From Candidatus Anaerobutyricum avicola (GTDB lineage Bacteria > Bacillota > Clostridia > Lachnospirales > Lachnospiraceae), in the NCBI GenBank assembly GCA_019113845.1, contig DXGQ01000005.1, positions 1-49,998 of the forward strand: a DNA stretch of 49,998 nucleotides. Reading direction: 5' to 3'. The notes under the pieces are model-generated. The model saw only the letters and a list, made by a program, of their open reading frames with translations, was not told where the DNA came from and did no database searches. Below, piece after piece: positions 1,609 through 49,872 of this stretch. Position numbers and translations under genes: made by a program. Position 1 is the first letter of the stretch. Each line of letters begins with the position of its first letter.

Positions 1609-2433
1609 TTAGAGCGTAACCTTCACAACCCTGTCCTCCGTTAAGGTGAAGATCAGGTGGCCGCCCCGGCAGACCTTGACGGACTCCACCAGCTTATTCC
1701 ACCTCTCATCGGTATAGACAGGATTTGAGTCGCCATATTTTTGCAGCATTTTCTCAAACGCCTCTTTGACTTCCTCATCCCGGAGTCTGGGAGACTCGCA
1801 GGCCTTATCGCCATCGTACTTGTGGTTACAGTACCAGACGTTATAACGTTCGCCCGTACTGCGCAGCCGCCAGACTTTGTGGCCATAAAAGGAGCCGCAG
1901 TCGCCACAGATGAGTCTCCCGGCAAAAGGATGCTTGGTGCGTACTTTTGCCCGGCGCTTGGTGGACTCTGCTAATATCTCCTGCACCCGGTCAAAAACCT
2001 CTGGTTCTATGATTGGCTCGTGGGAATTGCGCACACGGACGGATGGCACCTCGCCGTTGTTTTTCCGGACTTCTTTAGTCAGATAGTCTACGGTAAAGGT
2101 TTTCTGGAGCAAGGCCTCACCTTTGTATTTCTCGTTGCTGAGGATACTACGGACAGTGCTGACGCTCCATTTGGTTCTGCCTGCTGGCGTCAGGACGCCC
2201 ATACTCGTTAGGATGGCGGCAATCTCATTGATGGTCTTGCTGGAAATCCCGTTATCTGAGTAGATGGCAACCAGCTCCCAGTCCGGGTGCGCCGCAATAT
2301 AATTCTGGTAGTATTCCGTCTGGGCTTCCAGTGAGTGGAAGGCGGCATCCTTATCGGAAGAAACCCGGGCATAGGCTGCCACGCGGGTGACCTTTGGCTT
2401 CTTCGGACTAGCCGGTATTTCTTCAATACGCAT
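1609..2433 (-). pseudogene. large serine recombinase with internal in-frame deletion
   Basis: A 274-residue remnant of a large serine recombinase (resolvase/invertase superfamily). The N-terminus keeps the nucleophile motif YARVS (Ser25) and the strand ending YSDNGIS (residues 58-64). The sequence then jumps directly to the recombinase-domain segment INEIAAILTSMGVLTPAGRTKW. About 100 or more residues normally found between these points, including the conserved arginine block and the long helix E of the catalytic domain, are missing although the frame is open. The zinc-ribbon (CGDCG, later C and C) and a short C-terminus remain; the usual C-terminal coiled coil appears shortened. This protein should not be able to recombine DNA. 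It is probably the relic of an integrated mobile element. Start ATG 2433 is preceded by GGAGGTAAAG. Confidence 0.85.
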
Positions 2434-41942: not shown

Positions 41943-42653
41943 ATGTATTATGGATACGGTATGGGCGGTTTCTTCTGGGACCCGACCTATATTTTAGTTA
42001 TTATCGGTGTGGTCATTTGTCTCATCGCCTCGGCGAGAGTCAAAAGTACTTACTCGAAGTTTGAAAAAGTGAGAAGTCACTCCGGTGTCACGGCAGCGGA
42101 GGCGGCACAGCAGATTCTGCACGGCGCGGGCATCTATAATGTCCGGATTGAACATATTTCCGGACATCTGACGGATAATTATGACCCGAGAAGCAAGGTA
42201 CTTCACTTGTCAGACGCGACCTGGCGCTCCACCTCGGTGGCGGCTATCGGCGTGGCGGCTCATGAGTGCGGGCATGCCATTCAGGACGCGAGGGATTATG
42301 CGCCGCTTCGGATCCGGGGAGCGATCGTTCCGGTGGTTAATTTCGGTTCAGCGTTGTCCTGGCCGCTCATCATTATCGGTATCCTGCTGAGCTTTAATCA
42401 CTTTCTGATTACTTTGGGCATTGTATTATTTTCTCTTACGGTGGTCTTTCAGCTTGTGACCCTGCCGGTGGAGTTTGACGCGTCCTCAAGAGCGCTGCGG
42501 ATTCTGGGAGATTCTCATATGCTCTATGAGGAGGAACTGCGGGGCGCGAGAAAGGTGTTAAGCGCGGCGGCGCTTACCTATGTGGCAGCAGCGGCTTCCA
42601 CGATCCTGCAGCTTTTGCGTCTGGTGCTGCTGTTTGGGAGAAGAGACGATTAA
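41943..42653 (+). CDS. YugP-type zinc metallopeptidase (membrane)
   Basis: A 236-residue membrane protein of the YugP/DUF zinc-peptidase family. The zinc motif HECGH is at about residues 111-115, in VAAIGVAAHECGHAIQDARDY. N-terminal (about 15-30), two central (about 135-180) and C-terminal (about 205-230) hydrophobic segments anchor it; SGHLTDNYDPRSKVLHLSD and EFDASSRAL are family motifs. It is an uncharacterised membrane protease. AAAGGTGG precedes ATG. It is likely co-transcribed with rlmH downstream. Confidence 0.94.
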   Translation: MYYGYGMGGFFWDPTYILVIIGVVICLIASARVKSTYSKFEKVRSHSGVTAAEAAQQILHGAGIYNVRIEHISGHLTDNYDPRSKVLHLSDATWRSTSVAAIGVAAHECGHAIQDARDYAPLRIRGAIVPVVNFGSALSWPLIIIGILLSFNHFLITLGIVLFSLTVVFQLVTLPVEFDASSRALRILGDSHMLYEEELRGARKVLSAAALTYVAAAASTILQLLRLVLLFGRRDD

Positions 42654-42746: not shown

Positions 42747-43205
42747 ATGCAGGGGATAAAGATACTGTGTGTGGGAAAAGTAAAAGAAAAATATTTTCGG
42801 GATGGTATCGAATGTTATGTCCGGCAGGTTCGCCGGAAATATCTGATGGAGATCGTGGAGTGCGACGATGAGCCGACGCCGGAGGGAGCTTCAGCGGTGA
42901 TGGAGCGTCAGATCCGGGAAAAAGAAGGGGACCGGTTGTTGCAGAAAATACAGGAGGGCGACTATGTCATCGCTCTCTGTATTGATGGAAAACATTATTC
43001 TTCTGACGTCTGGCGGGAGCGGATGCAAAAGTGCGCGCGCCGTATTTCCGGTTCGCTGGTTTTTGTTATCGGAGGTTCTCTGGGCCTTTCGGATGCCGTA
43101 GTGAAGAGGGCAGATGAGAAACTCAGTTTTTCCGCCATGACGTTTCCACATCAGATGATGCGGATGATTCTCTGTGAGCAGATCGCCGGCATTTTTACAG
43201 ATTGA
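42747..43205 (+). CDS. rlmH: RlmH 23S rRNA pseudouridine1915 methyltransferase, C-terminal tail missing
   Basis: A 152-residue SPOUT methyltransferase matching RlmH, which methylates pseudouridine 1915 in 23S rRNA. The SAM-binding knot is intact: FVIGGSLGLSD (106-116) and the active-site region MTFPHQMMRMILCEQI (131-146). Normal RlmH proteins continue with a tail ending in a YRxFRI...EPYHK pattern. Here the frame ends after CEQI with AGIFTD and a stop. No downstream frame restores the YHK end. In RlmH dimers the tail of the other subunit completes the active site, so this protein alone should be inactive. A second RlmH-like protein (49435) carries exactly this tail. ATG 42747 follows TGGAGA. 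Confidence 0.93.
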   Translation: MQGIKILCVGKVKEKYFRDGIECYVRQVRRKYLMEIVECDDEPTPEGASAVMERQIREKEGDRLLQKIQEGDYVIALCIDGKHYSSDVWRERMQKCARRISGSLVFVIGGSLGLSDAVVKRADEKLSFSAMTFPHQMMRMILCEQIAGIFTD

Positions 43206-43260
43206 AAGAAAGATACCGGAATCCCGTTGATGGCAGATCGTGGAAAATATGCAGGTGGAT

Positions 43261-44802
43261 TCACACGGAAAAACGTTCTACCAGGCATTGTATACTCATA
43301 AAAAATGCACAGTAGAACAGCCCGCAGATGATGAGCATCCAAAAAGGATGGAGCCCCCCACTCAGGAGGAGATACTGGTACAGATGCTCTGAGAGCCATC
43401 CTCCGGCGAGAGACAGGGCGGCGGGCAGAAGCAGCGTCTTTTCCACGGAAAAAGGGAAGGTCGTGATCTTCAGGATACAGAACAGGTCGAGGAGGATCTG
43501 CACGATATACCCGGCTAGAAGACCGTACAGGTAACCGCGGATGCCGCAGGACGGGATCATGGTCAGGATAAAGAAAATCCGCATGGCCATGCCCAGCAGA
43601 TTATGGTACAGTGTCTGACGGGTGCTGCCAAAGCCGTTCAGGATACTGGAAAGGGTCTGTGCCGCATACATAAACGGGCAGAGGATAGCGAACAGATAGA
43701 CATAGTGTCCGGCCTCTTCGCTGCCAAATACCAGGTTACCCAGAATATTTCCGTAAATAAGAAAACCAAAGGTGCTGAATATACCGATGATGATGCAGTA
43801 ATGAAGACTTTTTGCGATAGTGCTTCGTATCTGCATCATTTTTTTCTGTTTATAAGAAAAGGAGATGGCAGGCAGCAGCATCACGGACAGAGAATTAACG
43901 ATAGTCGCCGGAAAAAACAAAAAAGGGAGGGCCATGCCGGTGAGTGTTCCGTAGCACTCCAGCGCCCGGGTCTGACTGCCAAGATACGAAACAAGCATAA
44001 AGGGAATCAGCATATTTTCCAGGCTGTTTATGATGGTCAGAGAAAAATGGTTGATGGTCAGAGGAATACTGAAGGAGAAAAATTCCCGGACCATAGTGGA
44101 AAACGGCTGTGTTGAGCGGGAAACAAAATCGTGCCGGACGGAATGCTTCCGAAAGAGATTTTTTTCGCTGACCAAGCTGGTATACAGATAGGCGAATGCC
44201 GTGTAGATGGTCGAGGCAATCTCTCCGACGACCATACCCCAGGCGGCGATGCGCGCATCGGCGGTAAACAGATAGACAGAGATGGAGAGCAGATAAATGC
44301 TCCCCACCCGGGCGCACTGCTCCACCAGCTGACTGGCGGCCGGTACGCTGGAACGGTTTAATCCGATATAGTAACCGTGCAGACAGGACTTCACAGCGAC
44401 AAAAGGAAGAGACAGGGCGGCGATGCGAAGGGCAGGCGCAGCGGAAGTCTCATGGAGCAGATGAGTGCTCAGATAACCGGCGCCCTCCCAGAGAAAGGCG
44501 AGGAGAAACAGGGAGAGCAGGAAGGAGAGGGTGCATGTCAGGCGGATCAGACGGTGGATATTTTTGCGTTCCCCCATGGCATAAAAACGGGAGGCAAGGT
44601 TGGAGATCCCTGTCTCAAACCCATGGCAGACCAGAGTAAAACAGAGCATATATACCGGAAAGATAAGCTGGTAAATGCCCAGTTCTTTTGCACCGATCAG
44701 GTTGGAGAGGAATATCCTGTTATAGAACCCCAGAATTCTGGAGAGAAATCCGGAAAAGGTGAGAATCAGAGTTCCGGTAAAAATGGTTTTTTTGTAGGAC
44801 AT
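43261..44802 (-). CDS. SpoVB-like flippase (polysaccharide biosynthesis/MurJ superfamily)
   Basis: A 513-residue membrane protein with about 14 segments. MSYKKTIFTGTLILTFSGFLSRILGFYNRIFLSNLIGAKELGIYQL is the SpoVB start, and SQLVEQCARV, LPFLFFPATIVNSLSVMLLPAIS and SILNGFGSTRQTLYHNLLGM are family stretches. It moves lipid-linked peptidoglycan precursors for the spore cortex or cell wall. The long open frame upstream to 45294 overlaps the cysteine desulfurase gene and lacks a ribosome site, so I start at ATG 44802 (AGGTGTTTCT upstream). It converges on rlmH and diverges from the cysteine desulfurase gene. Confidence 0.94.
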   Translation of the reverse strand: MSYKKTIFTGTLILTFSGFLSRILGFYNRIFLSNLIGAKELGIYQLIFPVYMLCFTLVCHGFETGISNLASRFYAMGERKNIHRLIRLTCTLSFLLSLFLLAFLWEGAGYLSTHLLHETSAAPALRIAALSLPFVAVKSCLHGYYIGLNRSSVPAASQLVEQCARVGSIYLLSISVYLFTADARIAAWGMVVGEIASTIYTAFAYLYTSLVSEKNLFRKHSVRHDFVSRSTQPFSTMVREFFSFSIPLTINHFSLTIINSLENMLIPFMLVSYLGSQTRALECYGTLTGMALPFLFFPATIVNSLSVMLLPAISFSYKQKKMMQIRSTIAKSLHYCIIIGIFSTFGFLIYGNILGNLVFGSEEAGHYVYLFAILCPFMYAAQTLSSILNGFGSTRQTLYHNLLGMAMRIFFILTMIPSCGIRGYLYGLLAGYIVQILLDLFCILKITTFPFSVEKTLLLPAALSLAGGWLSEHLYQYLLLSGGLHPFWMLIICGLFYCAFFMSIQCLVERFSV

Positions 44803-44934
44803 AGAAACACCTGGGGATGGGTTCTCTTGAATATATGAACCGGACAGATCAATTAGACTATAAAGCGGGAAAGAAGTAAAAAGGAATCCTGATCCGGCAG
44901 AATAAAAACAGAAAAAAGAAAGGTTGGTGCGACG

Positions 44935-46173
44935 ATGATTTATCTGGATAATGCTGCCACGACTCCGGTGCGGCCGGAAGTGTTGGAAGCAATGCTTCCG
45001 TATCTGAAGGAAGAGTACGGCAATCCCTCCGGGCTGTACCTGACTGCCGTCAAGGCGAAGGAAGCGGTGGAGAAAGCGAGAAAAACTATAGCGGACACTC
45101 TGGGCTGTGAAGAGGAAGAGATTTATTTCACTTCCGGTGGGACAGAATCGGATAACTGGGCGATAAAATCGGCCGTGCAGACTGCGGCAGAACAAAAATC
45201 GGAGGGCAGTAACGAAAAAGAGAGAGAAGGAGAGACAGAACGGGCGGATCTTCTGAAAAATTGTCATATCATTACAACACAGATTGAGCATCATGCCGTT
45301 CTCCGTACCTGCCAGGCGTTGGAGCGGGAAGGCTGTGCAGTCACATATCTGAGGGTCAATGAGATGGGGCAGATCTCATTGAAAGAGCTGGAAAAGGCTA
45401 TCCGCCCGGAGACGGTCCTCTTCTCTGTCATGATGGCAAACAACGAGGTGGGAACCGTACAGCCGGTAAAAGAAATTGGAGCAATCGCCAGACGCCGTCA
45501 CATTTTCTTTCACACGGACGCCGTGCAGGCATACGGGCATCTGCCGATCTCCGTAAAAGAGATGAACATTGATATGTTGAGCGCCAGCGCGCACAAGTGC
45601 GGCGGTCCCAAAGGCGTTGGTTTTCTCTATGTGAGACGTGGTGTGAATCTGCCGCCATTTATGCACGGGGGAGGACAGGAGAGAGGGCGGAGAGCCGGCA
45701 CAGAAAATGTACCGGGAATCGTCGGTTTTGGGAAAGCAGCCGAACTGGCTGCCGTGCAAATGAAGCAGACAGAAAAAGAGACGGCGCTCATGAGAGATCA
45801 TCTCATCCGCCGTCTCCTGACAGAAATCCCGTATGCCCGTCTGAACGGAAGCTGGAAAAACCGCCTGGCAGGCAACTGCAATATCAGCTTTCAGTTCACA
45901 GAAGGCGGTGCGCTCCTCATTCTCCTGGATGAAGAAGGAATCTGCGCTGCAGCAGGTTCCGCCTGCAGCACAGGTTCCAAAGAACCATCCCATGTGTTAA
46001 AAGCGATGGGAATCCCGGATGACATTGCCCGCGGGACCCTACGCCTGACCATCGGCCATCAGAATACGATGGAAGAGATGGACCAGGTGGTGGAGAGTAT
46101 GAAAAAATGTGTCGCGAGACTCCGGAAAAATGCGGGAGAATATGAAGACTTCAGAAATCATATGCCGGGATAA
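44935..46173 (+). CDS. cysteine desulfurase (NifS/IscS family)
   Basis: A 412-residue PLP enzyme that takes sulfur from cysteine for iron-sulfur clusters or tRNA thiolation. MIYLDNAATTPVRPEVLEAM starts it; GGTESDNWAI, IEHHAVL and ANNEVGT bind PLP; the Schiff-base Lys221 is in SASAHKCGGPKG and the sulfur-carrying Cys344 is in GSACSTGSKEPSHVL. A charged insertion of about 22 residues (85-106) follows GGTESDNWAI and is not usual. AGGTTGGTGCG precedes ATG. No scaffold protein gene is beside it. Confidence 0.94.
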   Translation: MIYLDNAATTPVRPEVLEAMLPYLKEEYGNPSGLYLTAVKAKEAVEKARKTIADTLGCEEEEIYFTSGGTESDNWAIKSAVQTAAEQKSEGSNEKEREGETERADLLKNCHIITTQIEHHAVLRTCQALEREGCAVTYLRVNEMGQISLKELEKAIRPETVLFSVMMANNEVGTVQPVKEIGAIARRRHIFFHTDAVQAYGHLPISVKEMNIDMLSASAHKCGGPKGVGFLYVRRGVNLPPFMHGGGQERGRRAGTENVPGIVGFGKAAELAAVQMKQTEKETALMRDHLIRRLLTEIPYARLNGSWKNRLAGNCNISFQFTEGGALLILLDEEGICAAAGSACSTGSKEPSHVLKAMGIPDDIARGTLRLTIGHQNTMEEMDQVVESMKKCVARLRKNAGEYEDFRNHMPG

Positions 46174-46179
46174 ACACAA

Positions 46180-47121
46180 TTATAAATCTAACTCTTCTGC
46201 CACACTCTTTAGTGTTTTTGCAGACTCCCGGAGCTTTTGCTGTTCCTCTTCGTTCAGAGAGATCGGCACGTGCGTCTCCACTCCGTCGAATCCTACGATG
46301 GCCGGCATACTGAGTGCAATTCCTTCGATGCCGTACTCTCCGTGCATCATGGAGGAGATGGACAGAATGGAACGCTCATTGCGCACGATACATTCGCAGA
46401 TACGTTTTACGGACATGGCGATACCGTAATAAGTAGCACGTTTCTTTTCGATGATCTCGTAGGCGCTGTTTTTAACGGAATCGGCGATTCGCTTCATGGA
46501 AGCCTCATGATTGAAATGTCCCCTCATTTCACAGAAGGTATTCAGTGGGATACCGGATACATTTGTGCTGCTCCATGCGGCGATCTCGCTGTCACCGTGC
46601 TCGCCGATGATGAAAGAATGAACGCTGCGGCTGTCCACACTCAGATGTTCGCCAAGAGCGTATTTCAGCCGGGCGGTATCGAGAACAGTACCGGAACCGA
46701 TGACTCTGTTCTCCGGTAGTCCGCTGAGTTTTAATGCGACATAGGTGAGAATATCCACCGGATTGGAAACGATCAGTAAGATTCCCTGGAAATCCTGCTC
46801 GGTGATCTGAGGAATGATACTTTTGTAAATTGCCACATTTTTATGTACAAGATCCAGTCTGGTCTCATTTGGCTGCTGGTTGGCTCCGGCAGTGACGATC
46901 ACAATACCGGCATCCGCGATATCTTTATAATCTCCGGCATAAATCTTCATCTGGCCGGCAAACGGGATGCCGTGCGCGATATCTTTTGCCTCGCCGTCAG
47001 CCTTATCATAGTTGGCGTCAATGAGAACGATCTCAGAGAACAGGCGGCTCTGCATCAGAGTAAAAGCCGTTGCGGAGCCGACAAAACCACAGCCGATAAT
47101 GGCAGCTTTTCTTGGATTCAT
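46180..47121 (-). CDS. ldh: L-lactate dehydrogenase
   Basis: A 313-residue LDH of the L-2-hydroxyacid type. NAD-binding GCGFVGSATAF (residues 10-20), substrate loop ANQQPNETRLDLVHKN (Arg88; Gln rather than Arg at the specificity position fits pyruvate over oxaloacetate), Arg151 in LDTARLKY, and catalytic His175 in IIGEHGDSE. It converts pyruvate to lactate with NADH. AGAGGT precedes ATG 47121; an upstream open frame crosses the tRNA gene and is not coding. It is divergent from tRNA-Arg. Confidence 0.95.
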   Translation of the reverse strand: MNPRKAAIIGCGFVGSATAFTLMQSRLFSEIVLIDANYDKADGEAKDIAHGIPFAGQMKIYAGDYKDIADAGIVIVTAGANQQPNETRLDLVHKNVAIYKSIIPQITEQDFQGILLIVSNPVDILTYVALKLSGLPENRVIGSGTVLDTARLKYALGEHLSVDSRSVHSFIIGEHGDSEIAAWSSTNVSGIPLNTFCEMRGHFNHEASMKRIADSVKNSAYEIIEKKRATYYGIAMSVKRICECIVRNERSILSISSMMHGEYGIEGIALSMPAIVGFDGVETHVPISLNEEEQQKLRESAKTLKSVAEELDL

Positions 47122-47299
47122 AATAAGCACCTCTTTCATTTGATTTGTATCAGTAATGACAACGGAGTTATTATAGCACATTTTTGAACAAAAGCAGTAG
47201 TAATTGCAACAAAAAACGGTAAAAAAGAATCTGTTTAATGACAAAAAATTTTCAAAAAAAGATAATTTTCTGCCTCTTTGAAATTTTTGAAAAAAACCC

Positions 47300-47328
47300 T
47301 TGCAAATTGTGTGAAAATATAGTATTAT
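47300..47328 (+). promoter_or_regulatory. tRNA-Arg promoter
   Basis: TTGCAA (47300-47305) and TATTAT (47323-47328) are 17 nt apart and end 23 nt before the tRNA. The region is strongly AT-rich. Confidence 0.75.
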
Positions 47329-47351
47329 AAACGCCGGAAGTTTTCTTCCAT

Positions 47352-47425
47352 GGACCAGTAGCTCAGTTGGATAGAGCAACGGTTTCCGGAACCGTGTGTC
47401 GGGGGTTCGAGTCCCTTCTGGTTCG
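47352..47425 (+). tRNA. tRNA-Arg (anticodon CCG)
   Basis: A 74-nt tRNA. The acceptor stem GGACCAG/CTGGTTC, D arm GCTC/GAGC, anticodon stem ACGGT/ACCGT around the loop TTCCGGA (anticodon CCG, reading CGG) and T stem GGGGG/CCCTT with TTCGAGT all form. The CCA end is not encoded. A promoter precedes and a terminator follows, so it is a single tRNA gene. Confidence 0.96.
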
Positions 47426-47431
47426 TTTTGT

Positions 47432-47460
47432 ATGCCTGAATATATTTCGGGCATTTTTTT
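47432..47460 (+). terminator. terminator after tRNA-Arg
   Basis: ATGCCTGAA (47432-47440) pairs with TTCGGGCAT (47445-47453, one G-U) and is followed by seven T residues. Confidence 0.85.
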
Positions 47461-47469
47461 ATTTCATAG

Positions 47470-47511
47470 GATCAGGGTGCCAGAAGGTTCATCACTTTTG
47501 ACACTCTGATC
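47470..47511. terminator. hairpin between tRNA-Arg and the secreted-protein gene
   Basis: GATCAGGGTG (47470-47479) pairs with CACTCTGATC (47502-47511, one G-U), followed by TTTC. It lies 73 nt past the stop of the minus-strand secreted-protein gene, so it may serve either strand. Confidence 0.45.
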
Positions 47512-47583
47512 TTTCATAAGAAATTGTGTTCCTGTGAAACAAAAAACGCTCCGCGGGGATCATACTGCGGGAAAAAGATGGCT

Positions 47584-48039
47584 TTATTTCCACTTTCCAC
47601 GGAAAAGGCTGCTGGAACCGGAATAGTAATTGCCGTCTGCTTTCCACCCCATATAGTTTTCCATCATATCTGCTTTTTTGTTGTATTTATAACAGAGCTT
47701 TTCTCCCTGGCTGTTTTTTAAGCGGATGACGTAACCGCCCTTTACCTTTTTACAGCCATAAATTTTCATGCTGTCGATGCATTGCCCGGTAGTTCTGTCA
47801 AAAATTTTCATTTTTGTCCGGGTGAACTTGCGGTCCGTGCCGCCGGAAGAGACATTCGTCCACCAGCCTTTTACCTGACGGTACACCTTTTTGCTCAGTT
47901 TAAATGTCTTTTTCTTTGCCATGGTCTCCATCTGCACAGATGCCGGAGTTGTTTCTTTTGCGTGAAGCGCAGTGCCCGGAAATGAAACGGACAGCAGTAA
48001 GGAAAAAATTACAACAGATATCCATATTTTTTTCTTCAT
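47584..48039 (-). CDS. secreted protein of unknown function
   Basis: A 151-residue exported protein. The N-terminal MKKKIWISVVIFSLLLSVSFPGTALHA is a type I signal peptide with a cleavage site after ALHA (about residue 27). The mature part is basic, with motifs WWTNVSSGG and KMKIFDRTTGQ, and ends in a beta-like region rich in Tyr and Gly (GYVIRLKNSQGEKLCYKYNKKADM ... YYSGSSSLFRGKW). It has two cysteines. I recognise no family. GGAGG precedes ATG 48039. It stands alone between tRNA-Arg and the DUF362 gene. Confidence 0.8.
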   Translation of the reverse strand: MKKKIWISVVIFSLLLSVSFPGTALHAKETTPASVQMETMAKKKTFKLSKKVYRQVKGWWTNVSSGGTDRKFTRTKMKIFDRTTGQCIDSMKIYGCKKVKGGYVIRLKNSQGEKLCYKYNKKADMMENYMGWKADGNYYSGSSSLFRGKWK

Positions 48040-48123
48040 GAGAATCCTCCTTTTTATTATGATAACTTCATTATACTATAGTGGCAGAGAGAAGAAAAGA
48101 AGCTTTTATTTTGTATTTTTTAG

Positions 48124-48153
48124 TTGTGCTTTCTTCGCGAAAGAGAGTATAAT
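48124..48153 (+). promoter_or_regulatory. DUF362 gene promoter
   Basis: TTGTGC (48124-48129) and TATAAT (48148-48153) are 18 nt apart and 68 nt upstream of ATG 48221. Confidence 0.6.
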
Positions 48154-48220
48154 AAGAACGGACTTTACGTGTCCGGCAGGCGATGCATGCCGGGATAAAA
48201 CAGAAAAAAGGAGTAAAAAC

Positions 48221-49351
48221 ATGGCAAAATCAAAAGTATATTACACAGATTTCAGAACAAAATTAGGGGAAGGACTTCCAACCAAATTAAAAAGACTCAT
48301 CAAGAAGGCCGGCATCGGTGATATCGATATGGATCAGAAGTTTGTCGCCATCAAGATGCATTTCGGCGAATTGGGTAACCTCGGATTTCTTCGTCCAAAT
48401 TACGCAAAGGCAGTGGCTGATGTGGTAAAAGAGATGGGCGGACTGCCATTCCTCACCGACTGTAATACCTTATATCCGGGCAGCCGGAAAAATGCGCTGG
48501 AGCATCTGCAGTGCGCCTGGGAGAATGGGTTTACCCCGCTGACCGTCGGATGTCCGGTGATCATCGGCGATGGTCTGAAAGGAACCGATGATATCGACGT
48601 TCCGGTAGAGGGCGGCGAATACATAGAGAATGCAAAGATCGGACGAGCTGTGATGGATGCCGATATCTTTATCAGCCTGACACATTTTAAAGGACATGAG
48701 ATGACCGGATTCGGCGGAGCCATCAAAAACATCGGTATGGGCTGTGGTTCCCGCGCCGGAAAGAAAGAGCAGCACTCCAACGGAAAACCGAGCATTGACC
48801 CGGAAGCATGCCGCGGCTGCAAACGCTGCCAGAAGGAATGTGCTAACAACGGTCTGGAATTCAACGAAGAGACAAAGAAAATGACGGTCAACATGGATAA
48901 CTGCGTGGGCTGCGGAAGATGTCTTGGCGCCTGCACCTTTGATGCCATCGAGTTTGTCAACGACGCCGCGACAAAAGAACTGAACTGCCGTATGGCGGAA
49001 TACACAAAGGCAGTCATCGACGGTCGTCCGAACTTCCACATCTCCCTCATCGTGGACGTTTCCCCGAACTGTGACTGTCACGCGGAAAACGATGCGCCGA
49101 TCCTGCCGAATATCGGTATGTTCGCGTCCTTCGACCCGCTGGCGCTCGACCAGGCTTGCGTGGACGCCTGTCTGAAATGCGACCCGCTGCCAAACAGCCA
49201 GCTTTCCGACCGGATGCACAGAGAGGACTTCTGCGACCATCATGACCACTTTGAGAACACCACACCGGACTCCGAGTACAAGACATGCCTTGACCATGCG
49301 GCTAAGATCGGCCTTGGAAACCGCGAGTACGAGCTTATCTTTGTAAAATAA
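48221..49351 (+). CDS. DUF362 domain protein with two iron-sulfur clusters
   Basis: A 376-residue protein of the clostridial DUF362/ferredoxin fusion type. The N-terminal DUF362 domain has KMHFGELGNLGFLRP and FLTDCNTLY; SLTHFKGHEMTGFGGAIKNIGMGCGS lies about 160-185. The ferredoxin part has two CxxCxxCxxxC motifs (CRGCKRCQKEC and CVGCGRCLGAC), enough for two [4Fe-4S] clusters. The C-terminus has histidine-rich FCDHHDHFEN. It probably moves electrons in the cytosol; its partner is unknown. AAAAAGGAG precedes ATG 48221, which is preferred over an upstream frame that crosses the promoter. Confidence 0.94.
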   Translation: MAKSKVYYTDFRTKLGEGLPTKLKRLIKKAGIGDIDMDQKFVAIKMHFGELGNLGFLRPNYAKAVADVVKEMGGLPFLTDCNTLYPGSRKNALEHLQCAWENGFTPLTVGCPVIIGDGLKGTDDIDVPVEGGEYIENAKIGRAVMDADIFISLTHFKGHEMTGFGGAIKNIGMGCGSRAGKKEQHSNGKPSIDPEACRGCKRCQKECANNGLEFNEETKKMTVNMDNCVGCGRCLGACTFDAIEFVNDAATKELNCRMAEYTKAVIDGRPNFHISLIVDVSPNCDCHAENDAPILPNIGMFASFDPLALDQACVDACLKCDPLPNSQLSDRMHREDFCDHHDHFENTTPDSEYKTCLDHAAKIGLGNREYELIFVK

Positions 49352-49368
49352 TCAGGATACGGCGAAAA

Positions 49369-49407
49369 AGCAGGAAATGTTTAGGTGGTTTTCGAATATT
49401 TCCTGCT
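49369..49407 (+). terminator. hairpin between DUF362 gene and rlmH-like gene
   Basis: AGCAGGAAAT (49369-49378) pairs perfectly with ATTTCCTGCT (49398-49407). Only a short T-rich tail follows, so termination may be partial. Confidence 0.55.
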
Positions 49408-49434
49408 AATGTTTACAGCAAATGAGTTACAATA

Positions 49435-49872
49435 ATGAAATATGAAATTTATATTTTTGAGGAGGTCAAAACGGCCTCCTTTTATAAAAAAGCTATCGAA
49501 GAATACGAAAAACGGCTGAGCCGTTATTGCAAAATATCCTGCCGTTTTATAAAAAAACAAAAAGAATGGGAGAAACTTCTGGCAGAGTCTGAAGGCGCCG
49601 GCGACGCCTGCTTTGTTCTGGCCGGACCGGATTCTGTATCCTCTGAGACTTTCAGCCAGGGAATCGGGCGATGGGAAATGTCCGGTCAGGGCAGAAAACG
49701 CTTCTTTATACCGGCCGCATACCTCGCCTTTACAGAAAAAAATAAAGAAGGAAAAATGGCGGTCATCAACCTCTCCGACTTTACCATGAACACGGCTATG
49801 ACAGCCATGATCCTCTATGAGCAGATATATCGGGGATATCGGATATTGAACAACCATCCATATCATAAATAA
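49435..49872 (+). CDS. divergent RlmH-like protein retaining the C-terminal tail
   Basis: A 145-residue protein related to RlmH. Its last 18 residues, YEQIYRGYRILNNHPYHK, are a full RlmH tail. The SAM-loop motif (GGSLG in normal RlmH) is replaced by FFIPAAYLAF, and the TFPHQ-R segment by FTMNTAMTA, so the catalytic His and Arg are missing. The start MKYEIYIFEEVKTASFYKKAIEEYEKRLSRYCKI also fits RlmH. Alone it should not bind SAM. It could supply the tail in a heterodimer with the tail-less RlmH at 42747. There is only a weak ribosome site before ATG 49435. The stop is followed after 2 nt by palindromic repeat C. Confidence 0.88.
   Translation: MKYEIYIFEEVKTASFYKKAIEEYEKRLSRYCKISCRFIKKQKEWEKLLAESEGAGDACFVLAGPDSVSSETFSQGIGRWEMSGQGRKRFFIPAAYLAFTEKNKEGKMAVINLSDFTMNTAMTAMILYEQIYRGYRILNNHPYHK

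What the first reader, a model, noticed from the sequence alone, without database searches (positions are those of the whole stretch)
42747..49872. Two RlmH paralogues with complementary losses: possible obligate heterodimer
The protein at 42747-43205 keeps the SAM loop (IGGSLGLSD) and TFPHQMMR but stops right after CEQI, lacking the conserved RlmH tail. The protein at 49435-49872 keeps that tail (EQIYRGYRILNNHPYHK) but has FFIPAAYLAF in place of the SAM loop and has lost the catalytic His/Arg region. RlmH works as a dimer in which one monomer binds SAM and the C-terminal tail of the other supplies catalytic residues, so the two proteins divide exactly these tasks. This would be the asymmetric RlmH dimer made permanent by gene duplication. 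The alternative is that the first gene is decaying and the second has another role.
Basis: partly seen in the sequence, partly recalled or inferred. Interest (0 to 1): 0.88.

Follow-up and report, generated by a model that had tools for sequence, protein, structure and literature searches.

The report
Ribosome methylase split into two halves
A gut bacterium appears to make one ribosome-modifying enzyme from two related proteins, one holding the methyl donor and the other lending the catalytic tail, and the same split recurs in other bacteria, sometimes with the tail-lending gene beside DNA that has inserted into the enzyme's own gene.

Summary
Gene 1 (42747-43205) keeps the RlmH SAM site and stops just after helix alpha-5. 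Gene 2 (49435-49872) lacks the SAM loop but keeps E138, R142 and the YHK tail. No other RlmH-family gene was found in the 98%-complete genome. Nineteen of 24 same-genus genomes carry both; both are under purifying selection. At sites assigned from the E. coli structure, 37 of 37 gene-2 proteins keep every tail-side position, while gene-1 proteins mostly keep the SAM side. In a curated set 46 of 46 gene-2 carriers have a lost or altered gene-1 tail, against 0 of 43 non-carriers. Gene 2 is one clade (100/100), but tail loss needs about ten changes, three firmly: not one local duplication, but an old tail-donor family repeatedly coupled to damaged RlmH. In some Bacilli gene 2 adjoins rlmH whose end is replaced by a shared junction; that junction occurs in 2 of 397 genomes, both gene-2 carriers. 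Best reading: obligate RlmH heterodimer, confidence 0.8.

The parts
42747..43205 (+). Gene 1: SAM-binding, tail-less RlmH (152 aa)
   Evidence: PF02590 3-141/154, 146 bits; over the NF000985 cut-off; B. subtilis 1to0, E 4.6e-40
43068..43085 (+). SAM glycine loop IGGSLG (E. coli 103GGPEG107 region)
   Evidence: G103, G104, G107 kept in 39 of 39 gene-1 rows
43140..43163 (+). TFPHQMMR, bight 3 with H129
   Evidence: H129 kept in 39 of 39 gene-1 rows, 0 of 37 gene-2 rows
43176..43205 (+). End of gene 1: E138, then QIAGIFTD and stop; R142 and the Y152-H153-R154 tail absent
49435..49872 (+). Gene 2: tail-donor RlmH paralogue without SAM site (145 aa)
   Evidence: PF02590 1-154/154, 83 bits; below the RlmH equivalog cut-off; 15 matches with E <= 0.001, all RlmH-family chains
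49501..49518 (+). EYEKRL, holding the basic pair at E. coli positions 25-26 assigned to monomer B
   Evidence: K and R at these positions in 37 of 37 gene-2 rows
49702..49752 (+). Former SAM loop replaced by FFIPAAYLAFTEKNKEG; variable in length and content among relatives
   Evidence: lowest confidence of the model (block mean pLDDT 73 for residues 101-110)
49819..49869 (+). EQIYRGYRILNNHPYHK: E138, R142 and the Y152-H153-K154 catalytic tail
   Evidence: each in 37 of 37 gene-2 rows
41943..42653 (+). Zinc metallopeptidase-like gene (named by eye) just upstream of gene 1, conserved neighbour within the genus
   Evidence: next to gene 1 in 11 of 11 same-genus loci compared

Best explanation
Genes 1 and 2 encode the two unequal halves of an obligate heterodimeric RlmH, which N3-methylates pseudouridine 1915 in helix 69 of 23S rRNA. 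Gene 1 binds SAM in the knotted pocket (monomer A). Gene 2 packs against it head to tail and supplies E138, R142, the basic pair at 25-26 and the Y152-H153-K154 tail (monomer B). A gene-1 homodimer would have SAM but no catalytic tail; a gene-2 homodimer would have tails but no SAM; only the mixed dimer builds a complete active site, and it builds one, not two. Shown here: the complementary residue sets, their conservation, no other RlmH found, and the tight link between gene 2 and damaged rlmH tails. Inferred: dimer formation, activity and substrate.
For: Residue roles come from Koh et al. 2017 (PMC5430550, parts 1-3 of 7 read): monomer A binds SAM and the second monomer's C-terminal tail is essential; E138A, E138Q, Y152F, H153F and R154A had no detectable activity; the second SAM site of the homodimer stays empty below 500 uM SAM. 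Scored at those sites (kept = same residue class as the single-copy consensus): monomer-B sites 296 of 296 cells in gene 2, 113 of 312 in gene 1, 284 of 288 in single-copy RlmH; monomer-A sites 589 of 663 in gene 1, 185 of 629 in gene 2, 559 of 612 in single-copy RlmH. Two RlmH-family matches in the genome. Tail lost or altered in 46 of 46 gene-2 carriers and 0 of 43 non-carriers; all 30 single-copy genomes have the full tail. In one order, gene 2 is in 3 of 397 genomes, all 3 with a damaged gene-1 end, and the junction that alters the end is in 2 of 397, both carriers. Gene 2 is one clade at 100/100 while gene 1 is not (AU p 0.0056); tail loss needs about 10 changes with tail columns removed. 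In G408, G482 and G697 the genes are adjacent and co-directional, gene 1 first. Purifying selection on both. Confident single-chain models, pLDDT 94.4 and 92.3.
Against: No biochemical data and no dimer model. Rows of the curated set were mostly found through gene 2, so 46 of 46 measures tail state given gene 2. Only 3 independent pairs lie on firmly supported branches; all go the expected way but the sign test gives p 0.25. G020 and G023 show gene 1 alone and G007 gene 2 alone, G104 and G504 gene 2 alone; incomplete assemblies are likely but not proved. Some genomes lack RlmH altogether (G040, G050, G054, G055), so methylation is dispensable in some lineages. In 4 of the 46 carriers gene 1 keeps Y152 and H153 in an altered end (YHTKP) and may still be active. 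About a third of monomer-B cells are kept in gene 1 (113 of 312).
Confidence: 0.8

Rival explanations
1. Subfunctionalised but not strictly heterodimeric: gene 1 forms a weakly active homodimer on its own (for instance with another residue acting as base), and gene 2 is an RNA-binding or stimulating partner.
For: In 4 of 46 gene-2 carriers gene 1 still ends in Y-H (YHTKP). Koh et al. note orthologues that end at H153 and lack R154. About a third of the monomer-B cells are kept in gene 1 (113 of 312).
Against: In the window's genus gene 1 ends right after helix alpha-5, removing Y152 and H153 outright; single substitutions there abolished detectable activity in E. coli. Gene 2 keeps the catalytic residues and not merely a basic surface.
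Confidence: 0.1
2. Neo-functionalisation: gene 2, or the pair, now acts on a different RNA or has a non-enzymatic ribosome role, and Psi1915 is no longer methylated.
For: Gene 2 varies widely outside its conserved stretches (28-81% identity to the window protein) with variable inserts where the SAM loop was. RlmH is absent from some genomes of the order, so its loss is tolerated.
Against: 9 of the 21 invariant columns of gene 2 lie in its tail stretch 129-145, and the SAM loop and TFPHQ stretch are the densest invariant part of gene 1; a changed function would not predict this.
Confidence: 0.07
3. Gene 1 is decaying and gene 2 has another role.
For: Tail loss by premature stop, in G420 and G1041 exactly before YHK.
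Against: dN/dS well below 1 in gene 1 across the genus; 21 of 21 same-genus copies tail-less yet otherwise open; SAM-site residues nearly unchanged.
Confidence: 0.03

Closest known systems
RlmH / YbeA / OrfX homodimer (23S rRNA m3Psi1915 methyltransferase, PF02590)
   Same: Same fold, same residues, same composite active site of one monomer's SAM pocket and the other's tail (PMC5430550, parts 1-3 of 7 read)
   Different: There each monomer has both halves; here each protein has lost one half and two genes are needed
Upa1-Upa2 (yeast SPOUT paralogues)
   Same: Two SPOUT paralogues proposed to work as a heterodimer on a large-subunit rRNA precursor (PMC8994135 and PMC1829167, passages)
   Different: Eukaryotic, another SPOUT family, heterodimer assumed from homologues; no split of SAM site and tail in the passages seen
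METTL3-METTL14 and DNMT3A-DNMT3L
   Same: Active methyltransferase plus a relative that does not bind SAM, needed for or stimulating activity (PMC10908127, passages)
   Different: Not SPOUT; in the passages seen the inactive partner binds and activates the active one, here it would supply the catalytic residues
SCC-type cassettes inserted at the rlmH 3' end (SCCmec, ECC and related Bacilli islands)
   Same: Serine-recombinase islands whose attachment site is the last codons of rlmH (PMC10061031 and PMC6222049, passages); gene 2 of some Bacilli lies at that junction
   Different: No half-RlmH cargo is mentioned in the passages seen; in staphylococci the reading frame of rlmH is kept on insertion (recalled)

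Membership tests
RlmH (gene 1) | Profile membership: PF02590 and NCBIfam RlmH equivalog | tested here: met
   146 bits against 27; 175.4 against 172 for NF000985
RlmH (gene 1) | SAM site: glycine loop and H129 bight | tested here: met
   (sequence only; SAM binding itself not tested)
RlmH (gene 1) | C-terminal catalytic tail Y152-H153-R/K154 | tested here: not met
RlmH (gene 2) | PF02590 membership and RlmH fold | tested here: met
   83 bits against 27; 15 Foldseek matches with E <= 0.001, all RlmH-family chains
RlmH (gene 2) | RlmH equivalog cut-off | tested here: not met
   60 bits against 172 for NF000985; the other eight RlmH models also below cut-off
RlmH (gene 2) | SAM-binding glycine loop and H129 | tested here: not met
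   G107 2 of 37, H129 0 of 37
RlmH (gene 2) | Catalytic tail with E138 and R142 | tested here: met
   37 of 37 each
RlmH activity | N3-methylation of Psi1915 by a dimer | not testable with these tools
   No biochemistry; no complex prediction offered
Heterodimeric methyltransferase with inactive partner | Physical heterodimer | not testable with these tools
   Inferred from complementary residues, co-occurrence and adjacency
SCC-like cassette (gene 2 in Bacilli) | Insertion at the rlmH 3' end | tested here: met
   Same 29-nt end of gene 1 in Brevibacillus, Cytobacillus and B. mediterraneensis; same junction in G754
SCC-like cassette (gene 2 in Bacilli) | Large serine recombinase in the element | tested here: inconclusive
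   PF07508 about 22 kb from gene 1 in G337 and next to gene 1 in G332; none near in G336 or G338; G754 and G1041 not searched
SCC-like cassette (window genus) | Element around gene 2 | tested here: not met
   Conserved chromosomal neighbours; the only PF07508 match on the window's contig is at 1966-2244, about 40 kb from gene 1

The most novel reading that the evidence does not exclude
Tail-donor half-RlmHs began, or travel, as cargo of cassettes that insert into the last codons of rlmH. Insertion wrecks the host enzyme's catalytic tail; the cassette carries a RlmH without a SAM site that lends its tail in trans, so host ribosome methylation becomes dependent on the element. In Anaerobutyricum, Anaerostipes and other Clostridia the element has gone but the split enzyme has become fixed, giving a standing heterodimer that arose by ratchet and not by advantage.
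Probability: 0.5. Interest if true: 0.88.

Novelty: new variant of a known kind. Interest (0 to 1): 0.82.

Why it matters
It would be a natural dissection of the asymmetric RlmH active site: evolution has put the donor half and the catalytic half into two genes, more than once, giving ready-made single-site enzymes to test the proposed mechanism. It would also be a clear case of a homodimer becoming an obligate heterodimer with intermediate states still visible (stop exactly before YHK, altered tails, tandem genes, a broken rlmH beside a whole spare one), and it suggests how an element that inserts into a useful gene can make itself tolerated. By the curated RlmH models gene 2 would not be called RlmH, so the pair is easy to miss.

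Tried and rejected
Rejected: read-through restoring gene 1's tail (no YHK-like relict after the stop in the gene-1 frame in the 24 copies; the 'stop inside' matches are the profile running past the stop). Rejected: decay of gene 1. Rejected: one duplication in this genus. Misleading first result: a 33-row gene-1 clade fell apart when tail columns were left out, so it is not used. Not supported: gene 2 as phage or plasmid cargo in the collections held. The 12 rows listed of 23 plasmid records and the 12 listed of 22 phage records are 465-480 bp matches, that is full-length RlmH (the unlisted rows not seen); of 61 pattern matches in IMG/VR one was a relative, a 438-bp match not followed up. Limits: the K11 column is off by one residue, and R43, D73 and S145 are not conserved as in E. 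coli even in single-copy RlmH, so single sites there mean little. Limit: profile coverage to 154 does not see altered ends such as YHTKP (G337 and G754 also reach 154), which is why the junction was searched for. Searches with A1 and A3 used lists that were capped or strict cut-offs, so gene-2 counts are lower bounds. Fold comparison by VIA-align was not available. No complex prediction is offered.

Literature searches: (PMC library only; most subscription papers absent). Listings and abstracts seen; passages of PMC8994135, PMC9508554, PMC10061031, PMC6222049, PMC1829167 and PMC10908127 and parts 1-3 of 7 of PMC5430550 read. None of these listings or passages reports a two-gene RlmH or a half-RlmH on a cassette; (RlmH with Anaerobutyricum) found 0 papers.
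Full report
WHAT IS THERE. Gene 1 (42747-43205, +) encodes 152 aa with the RlmH SAM loop IGGSLGLSD and TFPHQMMR, ending CEQIAGIFTD. Gene 2 (49435-49872, +) encodes 145 aa with no glycine loop (FFIPAAYLAFTEKNKEG in its place) and the intact end EQIYRGYRILNNHPYHK. Pfam places both in PF02590, gene 1 over positions 3-141 of 154, gene 2 over 1-154. NCBI's RlmH equivalog model NF000985 accepts gene 1 and rejects gene 2. The genome assembly (2.87 Mb, 98% complete) has no other PF02590 match.

THE GENUS. Of 24 genomes of the genus (window included), 19 carry both forms; 2 show gene 1 only (G020, G023; 75% and 70% complete), 1 gene 2 only (G007; 96%, 360 contigs), 2 neither (G010, G015; 84% and 76%). 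The 21 gene-1 copies all end just after helix alpha-5 and the 20 gene-2 copies all end in YHK. The 13 genomes of other genera of the family in that call (G024-G036) carry one full-length RlmH each. In 11 same-genus loci holding both genes on one contig, gene 1 follows the zinc-peptidase-like gene in 11, and between gene 1 and gene 2 lie the flippase-like gene in 9 and the cysteine-desulfurase-like gene in 8 (these gene names are by eye, from recall). Both genes are under purifying selection: finite dN/dS 0.071-0.155 for gene 1 (7 of 8 pairs) and 0.045-0.135 for gene 2 (6 of 7 pairs), with dS above 1 in several.

THE DIVISION OF LABOUR. In E. coli RlmH one monomer binds SAM and the other supplies R25, R26, E138, R142 and the tail Y152-H153-R154; E138A, E138Q, Y152F, H153F and R154A had no detectable activity; the second SAM site of the dimer is empty below 500 uM SAM (PMC5430550, parts 1-3 of 7 read). 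I scored those sites, fixed by the paper and not by these sequences, in 39 gene-1, 37 gene-2 and 36 single-copy proteins, counting a cell as kept if it has the residue class of the single-copy consensus. Tail-side cells kept: gene 2 296 of 296, gene 1 113 of 312, single-copy 284 of 288. SAM-side cells kept: gene 1 589 of 663, gene 2 185 of 629, single-copy 559 of 612. H129: 39 of 39 in gene 1, 0 of 37 in gene 2. The two proteins have lost complementary halves of the same composite site. Single-chain models are confident (gene 1 pLDDT 94.4; gene 2 pLDDT 92.3), and gene 2's 15 Foldseek matches with E <= 0.001 are all RlmH-family chains.

BEYOND THE GENUS. PF02590 shows the SAM-type partner in the ten besides G000 and G104; G104 showed gene 2 only. 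In a class-wide sample of 391 genomes, 8 besides the window's have gene 2 at the cut-off used; 7 of these 8 also have a SAM-type copy, and G504 shows gene 2 only, at a contig end. All seven SAM-type copies lack YHK; in G420 the stop falls exactly before YHK. In G408, G482 and G697 gene 1 and gene 2 are adjacent and co-directional. In G039, G103, G154, G192 and G141 they are adjacent and convergent. Named genomes with the pair: Anaerostipes avistercoris and A. excrementavium, a Lachnospiraceae MAG, Youngiibacter fragilis, a Clostridium MAG, and the Bacilli Paenibacillus sanguinis, Brevibacillus massiliensis, Cytobacillus gottheilii and Bacillus mediterraneensis; each of these 9 has exactly two PF02590 matches, one of each type. 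In the order of C. gottheilii 3 of 397 genomes carry gene 2, C. gottheilii (G337, the centre of the sample) being one, and all three have a damaged gene-1 end (YHTKP in G337 and G754; a stop exactly before YHK in G1041) (for G754 and G1041, for G337). Controls: all 140 genomes sampled from that order have rlmH, and the 138 without gene 2 each have a copy reaching profile position 154 (this would not see YHTKP-like ends); the junction sequence that gives YHTKP occurs, with up to 3 mismatches allowed, in 2 of 397 genomes, G337 and G754, both gene-2 carriers.

ASSOCIATION AND HISTORY. In the curated set 46 of 46 gene-2 carriers have a lost or altered gene-1 tail (41 lack Y152 and H153, 4 end YHTKP, 1 ends YRR) and 0 of 43 non-carriers do (G020, G023 and four single-copy rows untested for gene 2 were left out). 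Thirty of the 43 are all the single-copy genomes, not chosen by tail; the other 13 were chosen. Carriers were mostly found through gene 2, so this is tail state given gene 2. On firmly supported branches only 3 independent pairs remain, all in the expected direction, too few for significance (p 0.25). Gene 2 is one clade with 100/100 support. Gene 1 is not: holding all 39 gene-1 rows together is rejected (AU p 0.0056), and with tail columns removed the best tree needs 10 changes (9-12 in bootstraps, at least 3 forced by supported branches). The tail was therefore lost more than once, each time with a member of one gene-2 family present.

A MOBILE ROUTE. In L086 and L087 gene 1 is the ordinary chromosomal rlmH beside htrA- and walJ-like genes (named by eye), and the sequence just downstream is element-like: a D12 DNA methyltransferase in L086; transposase-like genes (by eye) and an ABC-3C component in L087. 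Gene 1 ends with the same 29 nt in Brevibacillus, Cytobacillus and B. mediterraneensis while the sequence upstream differs, and a near copy of that junction lies just after the truncated gene 1 of the Clostridium MAG. Gene 2 of Cytobacillus and B. mediterraneensis is almost identical (0.026 changes per column) although their gene 1s are about 0.48 apart, as expected of horizontal transfer. In C. gottheilii a large serine recombinase lies about 22 kb downstream, followed by repeats resembling the rlmH end; in P. sanguinis a recombinase sits next to gene 1. In Brevibacillus and B. mediterraneensis none was found near, and no clear second end was found in the stretches read. Cassettes inserting at the end of rlmH are known in Bacilli and enterococci (PMC10061031, PMC6222049; passages). 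G785 shows a related state: a broken chromosomal rlmH, a 554-aa recombinase-like frame (by eye) and a complete spare rlmH side by side. That gene 2 of Clostridia came from such elements is inference; no element surrounds it in the window.

MECHANISM, STEP BY STEP. Shown: two proteins with complementary halves of one site; no other RlmH found; selection on both; repeated coupling. Inferred from the E. coli structure: gene 1 and gene 2 pack head to tail; SAM binds gene 1; gene 2's E138-R142-Y152 triad faces the SAM methyl group; one Psi1915 is methylated per dimer. Not shown: dimerisation, activity, substrate.

VERDICT. I call it a new variant of a known kind: an RlmH whose asymmetric homodimer has become two genes, more than once, with a plausible origin in rlmH-targeting cassettes.

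Noticed in passing
L260 (G785:C12:121500-129500): Chromosomal rlmH broken by an internal stop with altered end, next to a 554-aa serine-recombinase-like frame (by eye) and a complete divergent rlmH: perhaps a cassette with a whole spare rlmH, a possible precursor of the tail-donor state.
   Followed up: partly
L087:8439-11036: DUF2326 protein and HNH plus CTD11 (ABC three-component) genes, a candidate defence system, between gene 2 and rlmH in Bacillus mediterraneensis.
   Followed up: no
G040, G050, G054, G055, G082: Genomes with no RlmH-family match, so the methylase seems dispensable in several lineages of the order.
   Followed up: no
L040:3021-3527 and L048:7571-8095: Gene 2 has long variable inserts where the SAM loop used to be (a strongly acidic one in G009), as if that region were free of constraint.
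   Followed up: no
gene 1 and gene 2, E. coli positions 122, 125, 127: The conserved hydrophobic dimer patch is mostly F/M/F in gene 1 and L/F/M in gene 2, which may favour mixed dimers.
   Followed up: no
window 1966-2244 (-): A serine-recombinase domain (PF07508) lies about 40 kb from gene 1; no link to the pair was found or looked for further.
   Followed up: no
window 47351-47426 (+): tRNA-Arg(ccg) gene between gene 1 and gene 2; the long open frame 46180-47454 (lactate dehydrogenase-like, by eye) runs over it and is probably over-extended at its start.
   Followed up: partly
L262:1053-1187 (G821): A short remnant of an rlmH 3' end about 7 kb from an intact rlmH, perhaps an old attachment site.
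   Followed up: no
L261 (G062:C1:4538500-4545500): A broken and an intact rlmH copy of the ordinary type, same strand, about 3 kb apart.
   Followed up: no
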